A stretch of 64,000 bases of DNA from Polyangium mundeleinium (GTDB taxonomy: Bacteria > Myxococcota_A > Polyangia > Polyangiales > Polyangiaceae): the NCBI RefSeq assembly GCF_028369105.1, contig NZ_JAQNDO010000001.1, forward strand, positions 12,494,501-12,558,500, read 5' to 3'. The first letter of the stretch is position 1. Each line of letters opens with the position of its first letter. Under the pieces are notes generated by a model. That model was given only the letters and a program-made list of their open reading frames with translations. It did no database searches and had not been told where the DNA came from. The position numbers were made by a program, and so were the translations under genes. Positions 22,778-26,876 of the stretch are shown piece by piece.

Positions 22778-23434
22778 TCAGGCCTCGGGATCGCGCAGGA
22801 GATACCCCGCCATTTCGTCGATCAGCGGGATCGCGTCCGGCTCGTGCGTCTCGGCGACCTTGCGGGCCGCTTCGAGCGCGCGTTTCGCCGTCGCCACGTC
22901 GTCCGTCGCCACGCAGAGCTGCGTCGTCGCAAGCAGGACGGGCAGGAGCGCGGCCGGATCCTCGGCCTGCTCGGCGGCCACGCGGGCGCGCGGCAAAAGC
23001 TCGCGCGCCCCTTCGATGTCGCCCACGGCGAGCGCCGCGACGATCTTGTTCGAATAAAGCACGGCACGCTGGGCCGGATCCTCGGCTTGTCGCTCCAGAT
23101 CCTCCGCCGACATCGCCGCGAGCCGCTCCATCTCGAACGCCTGCGCGAGCCCGGCCCGCAGCCGCCCGAGGCCCTCGACGTGCGCGGGCAGATTCGCCGC
23201 CTCGGCGTCCTTCTGCGCCTGCTCCAGCACCGCGAGCGCCTCCTCCTCCCGCCCGAGGCTCGCCAGTGCCCGCGCTTCGAGCGCGCGCGAGGGCGCGAGC
23301 AGGTCGGGCGTGCCTGCAAGCGAGGGCTGGAGCGCCTTCACGCGCGCGAGCGCGTCCTCGAATTGCCCCGCGCCGAGCTCGTTCGCGGCGAGCGACAGGA
23401 CGCTGCGCGGATCGTCGATCCCTTCCTCGGACAT
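22778..23434 (-). CDS. TPR-like helical repeat protein
   Basis: A 218-residue all-helical, Ala-rich protein. Repeated helix pairs such as LGAGQFEDALARVKALQPSLA, ALASLGREEEALAVLEQAQ and VGDIEGARELLPRARVAAE have the small-residue spacing of tetratricopeptide repeats. No signal peptide or enzyme motif is present. The ATG at 23434 (MSEEGIDD) has AAAGG upstream. It follows the small lipoprotein at 23455-23784 by 20 bases on the same strand and so may share its transcript. Likely a protein-interaction scaffold; no partner can be named. Confidence 0.65.
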   Translation of the reverse strand: MSEEGIDDPRSVLSLAANELGAGQFEDALARVKALQPSLAGTPDLLAPSRALEARALASLGREEEALAVLEQAQKDAEAANLPAHVEGLGRLRAGLAQAFEMERLAAMSAEDLERQAEDPAQRAVLYSNKIVAALAVGDIEGARELLPRARVAAEQAEDPAALLPVLLATTQLCVATDDVATAKRALEAARKVAETHEPDAIPLIDEMAGYLLRDPEA

Positions 23435-23454: not shown

Positions 23455-23784
23455 TCAGCGCTCTTCCTGAGGCCGCTTTTCCGGCGGCACGTAATGGGCC
23501 ACGAAGCCCTTTTTTTCGAGCCAGGCCGCGAGCAACGCGCGTCGCTTCGGCTCTTCGAGCTCCGATTCTTCGAGGCCGAGATCCACGGCGATGCTCGCCA
23601 CGAGCGAGCATCGATGCTCCCCGGGCGAGAGCTTCGCCTTCTCCGTCTCCTCCTTGCAGACCCGGAACACCGTCTCGTACTTTTCGAGCGTCTTTTTGGC
23701 CACCGCTTCCTTCGAGCACCCGAAGGCGAGCATGGGCAAGACGAGGACGAGCGCGGCGAGGGCGCGCAAGGAGGGGTTTTTCAT
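23455..23784 (-). CDS. Small lipoprotein, unknown function
   Basis: A 109-residue protein with a lipoprotein signal (MKNPSLRALAALVLVLPMLA then FGC) and a short charged helical mature part (KEAVAKKTLEKYETVFRVCKEETEKAK). Two further Cys residues (VCKEE, HRCSLV) could pair. It has a GGAG-like Shine-Dalgarno before the ATG at 23784. It lies between the encapsulin operon (77 bases upstream) and the TPR-like gene, all in the same direction, so read-through from the encapsulin promoter is possible. I recognise no family. Confidence 0.7.
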   Translation of the reverse strand: MKNPSLRALAALVLVLPMLAFGCSKEAVAKKTLEKYETVFRVCKEETEKAKLSPGEHRCSLVASIAVDLGLEESELEEPKRRALLAAWLEKKGFVAHYVPPEKRPQEER

Positions 23785-23861
23785 GAGGGCCGGTGGTCCT
23801 GCCGTTCGGGCGGCGGCGCACCGTACACGAGGGCGAGGGCGAACGGAAGGGCCGGCGGGAT

Positions 23862-24671
23862 CTAGCCGCGGCGGAGAACCACGGCCGCCTGCGGTTCGAG
23901 CACGCGGAACGTGAACGACTCGGTCAGGAAGAGCTCGACCCGCTGTTTTTCGTGGTACGCGTATCCGATCGAGAGATCCTGCCCGACCGTGAGCTCGAAA
24001 TCGCCGCCGCGCACGGAGAGCAGCACCGCGCCCGAGAGCGCAGGCGCCCACACGACCGGGTGATCGATGATCTGTCGCTCGATGCGCTTCAAGATCGGAT
24101 ACCCGTCGTCCGAGCCCGCCGCGAGCTCGTCGTATTCACGCGAGCCGGCCACGAGCACATAAGGACCCGTGACGCCGGCCGACCGGAGGACCTCTTGCGC
24201 CTGCACGACCGCAGCCGGGAATGCCGTGACATTCGGGACACGTACGGGCGCGTGCGGGCTCTTCTGCACGATGCCGTGGATGTCCCCCTCGGCATATCCA
24301 TGAAAAACGGCGCCGTCCTCGACCCGCGCGATCCGCTCGGCCGCCTGCACCACCGCGGACATGTCGAGGTCGACAGCGCCACGCGCCGCCGCGTCGAGGT
24401 CCGCGAGGTCGAGCGCGATGGGCGTGCGCAATTCGAGGAGCGGTTGCGATGTGCGTTGCCCGATGGACACGCCGGGCACGGGGCCCTCGCCGAGCGGGCG
24501 GAGCCGGCCCGTATTGACGGAGGCGTATCCCCAGCCGAACGGCCCGCGGAAATCGACGAGCTTGCGCGCCGCGAGGCTCAACTGGAGCACGCGCCGCGCC
24601 TCCGCGTCGATGAGCGCGAAGGCCTCGGGCAGGATCGGAGCGAGGTCACGACGAAGCAGGTCCAGAGCCAC
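23862..24671 (-). CDS. enc: Family 1 encapsulin shell protein
   Basis: HK97-fold shell protein that self-assembles into a protein nanocompartment. The 269-residue product has the encapsulin blocks RRDLAPILPEAFALIDAEA, LAARKLVDFRGPFGWGYAS at the N-arm and E-loop side, VEDGAVFHGY in the P-domain, GPYVLVAG, and SVRGGDFELTVGQDLSIGY leading to FLTESFTFRVLEPQAAVVL. Length fits T. maritima-type shells. It starts with GTG at 24671, three bases after the ferritin stop, and its Shine-Dalgarno lies inside the end of the ferritin gene. The cargo gene immediately upstream identifies this as an iron-storage compartment. Confidence 0.95.
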   Translation of the reverse strand: MALDLLRRDLAPILPEAFALIDAEARRVLQLSLAARKLVDFRGPFGWGYASVNTGRLRPLGEGPVPGVSIGQRTSQPLLELRTPIALDLADLDAAARGAVDLDMSAVVQAAERIARVEDGAVFHGYAEGDIHGIVQKSPHAPVRVPNVTAFPAAVVQAQEVLRSAGVTGPYVLVAGSREYDELAAGSDDGYPILKRIERQIIDHPVVWAPALSGAVLLSVRGGDFELTVGQDLSIGYAYHEKQRVELFLTESFTFRVLEPQAAVVLRRG

Positions 24672-24674
24672 GAT

Positions 24675-25097
24675 TCACCTCCCCTTCAAGCTGGCAATGC
24701 CGAGCCCACGACCCGAACCGGTGCGCGGCGGCGGAGAATGCGGCGGCGATGACGACGCCCCCGCGCTCGCCCCCTCGGCTTCACCCGCTTGTTTTCTTTC
24801 CTCGCTCGCCTCGATCTCGGTGATCGGGACGTCCTTCAGCAAATGGGTGCGGATATTTTTGTCAAATAACGAATCCTGCCGGCGGATCCATTCGAGGTTC
24901 ATCATCGCGTGCTCGATCTCCTCGGCACGGTTGTGCAAGAGGACGGCCTTGAGCTCCGCGTCGTTCGTGACCTCGGCGCGCTGCGCGTACCAATCGATGG
25001 CCTCGAGCTCCTCGATGAGGGACCAGATCGCTCGGTGCATGTCCCGAGCCGCAGGGGACAAGACGTCGTACGGCTCGTGATAGGTCTCGCTGCCCAT
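24675..25097 (-). CDS. Encapsulated ferritin (EncFtn) cargo protein
   Basis: Two-helix ferritin-like protein that oxidises Fe(II) inside an encapsulin shell. Residues 20-75 carry the EncFtn core: SLIEELEAIDWYAQR and LLHNRAEEIEHAMMNLEWIRR. By alignment to R. rubrum EncFtn the ferroxidase ligands are Glu30, Glu60 and His63, with Glu32, Trp36 and Tyr37 also conserved. After a Ser/Pro/Gly-rich linker the C-terminus GLGIASLKGR is the cargo-loading peptide; family 1 loading peptides usually read LGIGSLR/K, so Ala replaces the central Gly. The ATG at 25097 gives 140 residues. It sits directly upstream of the shell gene. Confidence 0.93.
   Translation of the reverse strand: MGSETYHEPYDVLSPAARDMHRAIWSLIEELEAIDWYAQRAEVTNDAELKAVLLHNRAEEIEHAMMNLEWIRRQDSLFDKNIRTHLLKDVPITEIEASEERKQAGEAEGASAGASSSPPHSPPPRTGSGRGLGIASLKGR
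24678..24684 (-). promoter_or_regulatory. Ribosome-binding site of the encapsulin gene inside the cargo peptide codons
   Basis: On the minus strand the codons for the last residues of the ferritin (Lys-Gly-Arg-stop) read AAGGGGAGGTGA. GGGGAGG is a near-perfect Shine-Dalgarno 6 bases before the GTG start of the shell gene at 24671. The loading peptide and the shell's translation signal therefore share the same bases, which also confirms the GTG start. Confidence 0.75.
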
Positions 25098-25174
25098 GCC
25101 CTTCGGATGCCGAAGCCGGGCGCGAGTTGCGGAGTGTCGAGGGCGAAGGCCGCGCAGGCGAGCGCGGCCGGAGA

Positions 25175-25546
25175 TCAGTAGTGAATGCGCGGCCCCTGCG
25201 CCTGGATCTGCCCGGCCCCCTGCTTGATTGCCGTCGCGAGCAGGAAGATCGATACCGGCAGGAGCACGGCCGCGAGGACGTGCATGCCCGTCGTGAGGAC
25301 CTGCGTGAGCGTGAACATCGTCCCGAGCCCCATGCCGGAGAAGCGGAACGCGAAGTTCAAGAGCTGCCGCAAGATCGAGGCGAAGGCGATGAGCGCCCCC
25401 GCGCCCGCGAGGCAGAACCCCGCGGGGGCATGCACCTTCTTCACGGTGCCGAGCCCCACGGCGACGAGGCCAACCCCGAGCAGCGTCAACACGCCGACGC
25501 TCAACAGGCCGAGCAGGCCCGCTCCGATTCCGCTCACCCCGCCCAT
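25175..25546 (-). CDS. Small four-helix membrane protein of the encapsulin locus (B)
   Basis: A 123-residue hydrophobic protein with about four predicted helices (LLGLLSVGVLTLLGVGLVAVG, FCLAGAGALIAFASIL, MFTLTQVLTTGMHVLAAVLLPVSIFLL). Its layout resembles the overlapping upstream protein: both have GAG-rich second helices (AGFCLAGAGAL versus AGFVFAGAGGV) after a short loop with Pro, Val and Asn or Lys, so they look like diverged paralogues. It begins inside the 3' end of that gene (13-base overlap) and lies 77 bases before the ferritin gene. I recognise no family. Cotranscription with the encapsulin genes is likely; a role in iron entry or membrane docking of the compartment is conjecture. Confidence 0.7.
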   Translation of the reverse strand: MGGVSGIGAGLLGLLSVGVLTLLGVGLVAVGLGTVKKVHAPAGFCLAGAGALIAFASILRQLLNFAFRFSGMGLGTMFTLTQVLTTGMHVLAAVLLPVSIFLLATAIKQGAGQIQAQGPRIHY

Positions 25547-25893
25547 GCCCCACCGCCCTTCTGCTGCGGCCGCGTCCCCGCGAGCGTGTACGCCCCGAAC
25601 GCGATCCCGCCGAAAAACACCGCGCTCGTGCCGATCGAGATCACGCTGCTGATCGCGCTCCAGATCATGATCGCGTCGAATCCGGCGTTCGCCATCATCG
25701 CGTCGACGATGAAGTCGAGCACGAGGCCAAAGAGCCGCACGCCCCCGGCGCCCGCAAAGACGAACCCTGCATTCTGGTTCACCGGCCGCACGACGACGAG
25801 CCCCAGCACGAGCACCGCGATGGCCACGAGGACATGCACCCCCGTGGCGAGGCCCCCGATCACTGACAAAAGACCGCGTTCTGCCGGGTCCAT
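25534..25893 (-). CDS. Small four-helix membrane protein of the encapsulin locus (A)
   Basis: A 119-residue hydrophobic protein, first gene of the minus-strand encapsulin locus. Helices: LLSVIGGLATGVHVLVAIAVLVLGLVVV, then NAGFVFAGAGGVRLFGLVLDFIV, then a third around FDAIMIWSAISSVISIG and a fourth FFGGIAFGAYTLAG. The ATG at 25893 (MDPAERG) has GGGAGGAT as Shine-Dalgarno at ideal spacing; an upstream ATG at 25962 is less likely. It diverges from the ZIP-like gene at 26022 with a 128-base shared control region. Weak similarity to its overlapping neighbour suggests duplication. No known domain. Confidence 0.7.
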   Translation of the reverse strand: MDPAERGLLSVIGGLATGVHVLVAIAVLVLGLVVVRPVNQNAGFVFAGAGGVRLFGLVLDFIVDAMMANAGFDAIMIWSAISSVISIGTSAVFFGGIAFGAYTLAGTRPQQKGGGAWAG

Positions 25894-26021
25894 CCCATCC
25901 TCCCTCACGCCGTTTGGCGCTCCTTCGACGAACGGGCCCGACAGTACACGCGTCCGAGACACACCGCGAGGGCGAAGGCTCTCGATCGGACCGGCACGAA
26001 TTTCATGCTACGACGCGCGCC

Positions 26022-26876
26022 GTGTCCCTCCCTGCCGGGCTCGCCGTCCTCGCGCTCGCCGTCCTGCTCGGCGGCATCGCCGCGATCTGGCGTGACCACG
26101 GGCAACGCGTCATGCCGGGGCTCGGGACGTTCGCGATGGTCGCGTCGGCCGCGGTCGCGCTCCTGCACCTCTTGCCCGAGGCCATCGCCGAGGCCGGCTG
26201 GCTGGCGCTCGGAGCTGCGGCGGCCGGCTTCCTCGTGCCGTTTTTGATCGAACGGCTCGTGCCCCAGCGGAACGCGCACGCGGACGGTCCCACGCTCGTG
26301 ATGGGGTACGTCGCGGTGCTCCTGCATCAGGCTGGCGAGGGCACGGCCGTCGCCTCGCTCTCACGCGCGGGCGAGCTCCATCCGACGATCGTGCTCGCGA
26401 TCGCGGGGCACACGGTGCCGCTCGCGATGGTGGTGGCGATCCAGGCGCTCGAACACGTGGCGGGGCCGAAGAGCAAGGTCGTCGCGGCGCTCTCGCTCAT
26501 CGGCTGCGCGCTCTCGACCGTGGGTGGTGCCATGTCGCTCGACCTCGTGGGCGCGGCGCGGATCGCGTCGATCCGGCCGTGGCTCGTGGCCGCGGTGGCG
26601 GGGCTGCTCCTGCACGCGCTCTCGCACGCGCCGAAGATGAGCGAGGAGGGCGCGCGGAGCCGGGTGACGGAGATCGTGGCGGGGCTCGTGGGGCTCTCGC
26701 TCGCGCTCGTGAGCCTGGAGCACGACGGCTGGGTGCTCTACCTCGGCTGGCCCTTGCGGGTCCTCGGCCTCGTGGTGCTCGTCGCCGCGGTCGTCGCGAA
26801 GGGGCTCGTCACGGGCGCGCGAACGGTCGCGGAACATCCGCTGCGATCGGACGGACGAGATCCTCGGGCCGGATGA
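26022..26876 (+). CDS. ZIP-like divalent-metal transporter
   Basis: A 284-residue inner-membrane protein with about eight hydrophobic helices and ZIP-family signatures: ALLHLLPEAIAEAG early, LLHQAGEGTAVASL as the TM4 metal motif (His, Glu-Gly) and AGHTVPLAMVV as the TM5 motif. TM5 normally reads HEXPE; here Thr and Leu replace the acidic residues, so metal handling may differ. The GTG at 26022 (VSLPAGL) starts just before the first helix. The gene diverges from the encapsulin iron-storage operon, and its 3' end overlaps the convergent radical-SAM gene by 68 bases. Iron or zinc transport is inferred from family and neighbourhood. Confidence 0.65.
   Translation: MSLPAGLAVLALAVLLGGIAAIWRDHGQRVMPGLGTFAMVASAAVALLHLLPEAIAEAGWLALGAAAAGFLVPFLIERLVPQRNAHADGPTLVMGYVAVLLHQAGEGTAVASLSRAGELHPTIVLAIAGHTVPLAMVVAIQALEHVAGPKSKVVAALSLIGCALSTVGGAMSLDLVGAARIASIRPWLVAAVAGLLLHALSHAPKMSEEGARSRVTEIVAGLVGLSLALVSLEHDGWVLYLGWPLRVLGLVVLVAAVVAKGLVTGARTVAEHPLRSDGRDPRAG

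What the first reader, a model, noticed from the sequence alone, without database searches (positions are those of the whole stretch)
23862..26876. Encapsulin iron-storage locus with two unknown membrane proteins and a ZIP-like transporter
The sequence shows, in one direction, two small four-helix membrane proteins, an encapsulated ferritin with loading peptide, and the shell protein; a ZIP-like transporter diverges from them. EncFtn-encapsulin pairs are known. I do not know of the paired small membrane proteins as a described part of such systems. They look like mutual paralogues and overlap by 13 bases. A model is iron entry through the ZIP-like protein and membrane-linked delivery to the compartment.
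Basis: partly seen in the sequence, partly recalled or inferred. Interest (0 to 1): 0.7.

Follow-up and report, generated by a model that had tools for sequence, protein, structure and literature searches.

The report
Ordinary iron-storage nanocompartment with unrelated neighbours
A soil myxobacterium (genus Polyangium) carries a standard two-gene iron-storage nanocompartment (encapsulin plus its ferritin cargo); the two small membrane proteins beside it belong to an undescribed family that in other bacteria sits elsewhere in the genome, so they are probably neighbours rather than parts of the iron store.

Summary
Encapsulin (23862-24671) and EncFtn (24675-25097) are a textbook family 1 EncFtn-encapsulin pair: strong family matches, ferroxidase residues kept, C-terminal targeting peptide LGIASLKGR. 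Upstream lie two mutually paralogous membrane proteins with the claimed 13-base overlap, conserved in all six Polyangium genomes, and a divergent remote ZIP relative. The membrane proteins look three-helical, not four.

The proposed link does not hold up. Conversely, none of 31 EncFtn loci outside Polyangium has a family member beside it. Close ZIP-like homologues are also unlinked to EncFtn.

Inside Polyangium the neighbourhood is conserved together with unrelated genes, so adjacency counts as one evolutionary event. A Polyangium-specific functional link is not excluded, only unsupported. Verdict: new member of a known kind, beside an uncharacterised membrane-protein family.

The parts
23862..24671 (-). 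Encapsulin family 1 shell protein (269 aa, GTG start)
   Evidence: PF04454 E 9.9e-84, NF041155 E 1.5e-86; closest solved relative Haliangium ochraceum encapsulin 7odw, E 5e-96; only encapsulin match in the genome
24675..25097 (-). EncFtn encapsulated ferritin (140 aa); E30, E60, H63 at the ferroxidase positions; C-terminal targeting peptide LGIASLKGR
   Evidence: PF22277 E 1.2e-35, TIGR04535 129.4 bits against cut-off 125; aligned to Haliangium and Rhodospirillum EncFtn; peptide compared with published consensus SDGSLGIGSLKRS (PMC8346489)
25148..25169 (-). GC-rich hairpin (8-bp stem, 6-nt loop) just after the MemB stop codon, in the 77-nt spacer before EncFtn; no U-tract
   Evidence: stem kept in 5 of 6 species (one terminal mismatch in one of them), G-U changes only; no terminator or promoter consensus
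25175..25546 (-). MemB, small membrane protein (123 aa, three hydrophobic segments), unnamed family
   Evidence: no Pfam/NCBIfam match; kept in 6 of 6 Polyangium
25534..25893 (-). MemA, small membrane protein (119 aa, three long helices), paralogue of MemB, 13-nt overlap with it
26022..26876 (+). Remote ZIP-like membrane protein (284 aa), divergent from MemA across a 128-nt spacer
   Evidence: relatives match PF02535 weakly (best 5e-6; 3 of 12 members); invariant H102, G107, H130, P133, H198, H202
23455..23784 (-). Small predicted lipoprotein (109 aa), 77 nt after the encapsulin gene; part of the syntenic block, link to encapsulin not shown
22778..23434 (-). 218-aa protein with weak TPR similarity, part of the syntenic block

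Best explanation
A conventional two-gene EncFtn-encapsulin iron store. EncFtn forms ferroxidase decamers that are drawn into a self-assembling shell by the C-terminal peptide; Fe2+ entering through shell pores is oxidised and stored as mineral. The two genes look translationally coupled: 3-nt gap, and the last EncFtn codons (AAG GGG AGG TGA) double as the ribosome-binding site of the shell gene. The membrane pair and the ZIP-like gene are lineage-specific neighbours. MemA-MemB are translationally coupled paralogues, most likely one hetero-oligomeric membrane assembly, from a scattered family with no fixed partner and no dedicated role in the compartment. Shown: gene identities, residues, overlaps, distribution. 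Inferred: decamer and shell assembly (from solved relatives), hetero-oligomer, absence of a functional link.
For: Family and structure-sequence matches. 37 of 145 genomes of the order have EncFtn; only the six Polyangium have the membrane pair beside it. With a profile, 17 of 145 genomes in 10 genera have the membrane family; none of the 11 outside Polyangium has it beside EncFtn, and six of these have no EncFtn match at all. In G030 (2 contigs) EncFtn is at 3.69 Mb, the pair at 0.46 Mb and a single copy at 10.4 Mb of one contig. In Polyangium the radical-SAM, lipoprotein, TPR and mostly the GGT neighbours are kept as well, so adjacency is one event. ZIP-like homologues (about 50%) in G109 and G134 lie on other contigs than EncFtn; G075 and G144 have no EncFtn match.
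Against: In all six Polyangium species the pair lies upstream of EncFtn in the same direction with a conserved spacer of 70-79 nt, which would suit cotranscription. A new Polyangium-only role would not show in other genera. Most comparison genomes are drafts, so 'another contig' is weaker than the G030 case.
Confidence: 0.82

Rival explanations
1. In Polyangium the MemA-MemB pair has been recruited as a membrane partner of the encapsulin (docking, or iron delivery).
For: Same strand, 77-nt gap, order kept in all six Polyangium species; membrane accessory genes (DUF1345) are reported in DyP-encapsulin operons of Streptomyces (PMC8346489).
Against: No homologue beside EncFtn elsewhere; no conserved metal-ligand set in the family, whose invariant columns are L22, V35, G43; neither C-terminus carries the targeting consensus; the pair changes faster (pN/pS 0.60 and 0.67) than EncFtn (0.30) and shell (0.15); hairpin between the units in five of six species.
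Confidence: 0.1
2. The divergent ZIP-like protein is an iron importer that feeds the compartment.
For: Remote ZIP similarity; TM4 motif HxxxEG kept; conserved 128-nt divergent spacer.
Against: The TM5 motif reads HTVPL, where canonical ZIPs have acidic ligands (from my knowledge of ZIP structures, not aligned here); close homologues are unlinked to encapsulin; several relatives are fused to an ArsP_1 permease, a family best known for efflux (the efflux remark is from my own knowledge); the structural model is too poor to test.
Confidence: 0.05
3. The membrane pair is a two-component holin- or toxin-like module unrelated to iron (compatible with the best explanation as to the compartment itself).
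For: Small size, tandem coupled paralogues, scattered contexts; the top viral fold match is a phage holin, but at E 0.22.
Against: The match is not significant; no lysis or antitoxin partner genes seen; stable vertical retention in Polyangium.
Confidence: 0.05

Closest known systems
EncFtn-encapsulin (family 1, ferritin-like cargo) of Haliangium ochraceum and Rhodospirillum rubrum
   Same: EncFtn next to the shell gene, ferroxidase residues, C-terminal targeting peptide, high similarity of both proteins
   Different: Only the surrounding genes; nothing in the core
DyP-encapsulin operons of Streptomyces with DUF1345 membrane accessory genes (PMC8346489)
   Same: Membrane-protein gene next to an encapsulin operon
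   Different: Different cargo; no Pfam match of MemA or MemB to DUF1345
ZIP metal transporters (PF02535)
   Same: Remote profile similarity in relatives; HxxxEG in TM4, H..P in TM5
   Different: Below Pfam cut-off; acidic TM5 ligands missing; relatives fused to ArsP_1

Membership tests
EncFtn-encapsulin family 1 system | HK97-fold shell of the Linocin_M18 family | tested here: met
   PF04454 E 9.9e-84, NF041155 above cut-off
EncFtn-encapsulin family 1 system | EncFtn-like cargo next to the shell gene with ferroxidase residues (E32, E62, H65 in R. rubrum numbering) | tested here: met
   PF22277, TIGR04535 above cut-offs; E30, E60, H63 in the alignment to R. rubrum EncFtn; the identity of the ferroxidase residues is from my knowledge of the R. 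rubrum structure
EncFtn-encapsulin family 1 system | C-terminal targeting peptide on the cargo | tested here: met
   LGIASLKGR at the C-terminus against consensus SDGSLGIGSLKRS
EncFtn-encapsulin family 1 system | Assembly and iron mineralisation | not testable with these tools
   Needs the purified complex
ZIP transporter (PF02535) | Pfam match above gathering score | tested here: not met
   No match for the window protein; best relative 26.4 bits against cut-off 35.1
ZIP transporter (PF02535) | Binuclear metal site with acidic ligands in TM4 and TM5 | tested here: inconclusive
   HxxxEG kept in TM4; TM5 reads HTVPL without acidic residue; reference residues recalled from memory, not aligned to a solved ZIP
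Conserved encapsulin accessory component (for MemA-MemB) | Recurrent neighbourhood with encapsulin in independent lineages | tested here: not met
   Only Polyangium; all 11 genomes outside it have the family elsewhere

The most novel reading that the evidence does not exclude
A Polyangium-specific encapsulin operon in which a translationally coupled pair of membrane proteins tethers the iron store to the membrane or channels iron to it.
Probability: 0.1. Interest if true: 0.6.

Novelty: new member of a known kind. Interest (0 to 1): 0.2.

Why it matters
It adds a clean EncFtn-encapsulin member and removes a tempting but unsupported claim of membrane-linked iron delivery. It also exposes an undescribed family of small, often tandem and coupled membrane proteins in myxobacteria that matched no model in the libraries searched.

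Tried and rejected
Fold search of the MemA model in PDB and in the viral library: no match below E 0.2. Profile search of the membrane family and of the ZIP-like family against PDB sequences: nothing. The ZIP-like AlphaFold model has mean pLDDT 50, so its structural matches were not used; no ZIP structure is listed there, which proves nothing. Pfam scan of 17 membrane-family members: only stray hits in one or two members. Rfam: nothing. Hairpin as a conserved RNA element: no two-sided covariation, absent in the most distant species, fold z-scores between -1.1 and 1.4. A shared spacer motif TTCGCCCTCG (three of its four window copies fall in spacers of this cluster) is not kept exactly in relatives at the MemA spacer, so it was not used as evidence of co-regulation. 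The lipoprotein row used a wrong window frame and is not used.

Full report
What is there. The finding lies in a 13.25-Mb genome of the genus Polyangium, as the named records of its relatives show: P. fumosum and three Polyangium sp. strains. On the minus strand, in order of transcription: MemA 25893-25534, MemB 25546-25175, EncFtn 25097-24675, encapsulin 24671-23862, then a small predicted lipoprotein and a TPR-like protein. A ZIP-like ORF runs the other way, 26022-26876. Both compartment genes are unambiguous: the shell matches Linocin_M18 at E 1e-83 and the Haliangium ochraceum shell at E 5e-96; the cargo passes the TIGR04535 cut-off, keeps the ferroxidase positions E30, E60 and H63, and ends in LGIASLKGR, close to the published targeting consensus SDGSLGIGSLKRS (PMC8346489). 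The gap between the two genes is 3 nt, and the last EncFtn codons form a strong ribosome-binding site for the shell gene.

The membrane pair. MemA and MemB share sequence (BLASTP E 4e-4; cross-hits down to 2e-6 in relative L053; one profile covers both). The 13-nt overlap is identical in length in all six Polyangium genomes, which argues for translational coupling. No Pfam, NCBIfam, PDB or fold match was found.

Is the pair part of the encapsulin system? EncFtn occurs in 37 of 145 sampled genomes of the order. Reading the surroundings of the loci outside Polyangium (31 loci; several lie close to contig ends) showed no homologue of the pair beside EncFtn. Conversely, a profile of the family finds it in 17 of 145 genomes and 10 genera. 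The 11 genomes outside Polyangium have it as tandem pairs (for example G030, G002, G040, G008, G006, G060) or as single genes, next to unrelated genes, never with EncFtn. Six of those genomes (G006, G008, G018, G045, G057, G084) gave no EncFtn match at all. In the two-contig genome G030 the pair lies at 0.46 Mb and EncFtn at 3.69 Mb of the same contig. So the family occurs without encapsulin, and encapsulin occurs without the family.

Within Polyangium the adjacency is perfect, but so is most of the block: the radical-SAM gene, lipoprotein and TPR gene are kept in all six and the GGT gene in five. Adjacency in six congeners therefore counts as one event. The 77-nt spacer before EncFtn has a GC-rich hairpin right after the MemB stop in five of six species. 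It lacks a U-tract and is no consensus terminator, so cotranscription is open. The pair evolves faster than cargo and shell (pN/pS 0.60 and 0.67 against 0.30 and 0.15).

The ZIP-like gene. The window protein has no Pfam match; three of twelve alignment members match PF02535 weakly (best E 5e-6, below cut-off). Alignment shows invariant H102, G107, H130, P133, H198 and H202; the TM4 motif HxxxEG is ZIP-like, while TM5 reads HTVPL without the acidic ligands I know from solved ZIPs (comparison from memory). Several relatives carry the same domain fused to an ArsP_1 permease with a His-rich tail. Homologues at about 50% identity lie apart from EncFtn (G109, G134) or in genomes without it (G075, G144). 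The structure prediction was too poor to use.

Conclusion. This is an ordinary EncFtn-encapsulin iron store with lineage-specific neighbours. The residual novel reading, recruitment of the pair in Polyangium alone, is not excluded; membrane accessory genes are reported near other encapsulins (DUF1345 in Streptomyces DyP operons, PMC8346489).

Noticed in passing
L081:6113-6774, L082:5250-5914, L136:1391-2031, L142:2664-3342, L116:5588-6327: Undescribed family of small three-segment membrane proteins in Polyangiales, often tandem coupled pairs; nine of eighteen non-Polyangium members aligned carry a Cys-Cys dipeptide at the end of helix 2 that the Polyangium pair lacks.
   Followed up: partly
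L101:1483-3357, L099:376-2172, L104:1480-3339, L105:340-2079: Relatives of the ZIP-like protein in which the ZIP-like domain is fused to an ArsP_1-type permease with a His-rich C-terminal tail.
   Followed up: partly
26809-26876: The ZIP-like gene and the convergent radical-SAM gene overlap tail to tail by 68 nt; the overlap is kept in the other Polyangium genomes.
   Followed up: no
23834-23843, 25138-25147, 25967-25976: TTCGCCCTCG occurs four times in the window, three of them on one strand in three spacers of this cluster (shuffle mean 0.8 in the whole window); only partly conserved in relatives.
   Followed up: partly
23820-23829 and 25941-25950: CGTGTAC[GT]GT occurs twice in the window, before the lipoprotein gene (invariant in six species) and before MemA (core only); possible promoter element.
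   Followed up: partly
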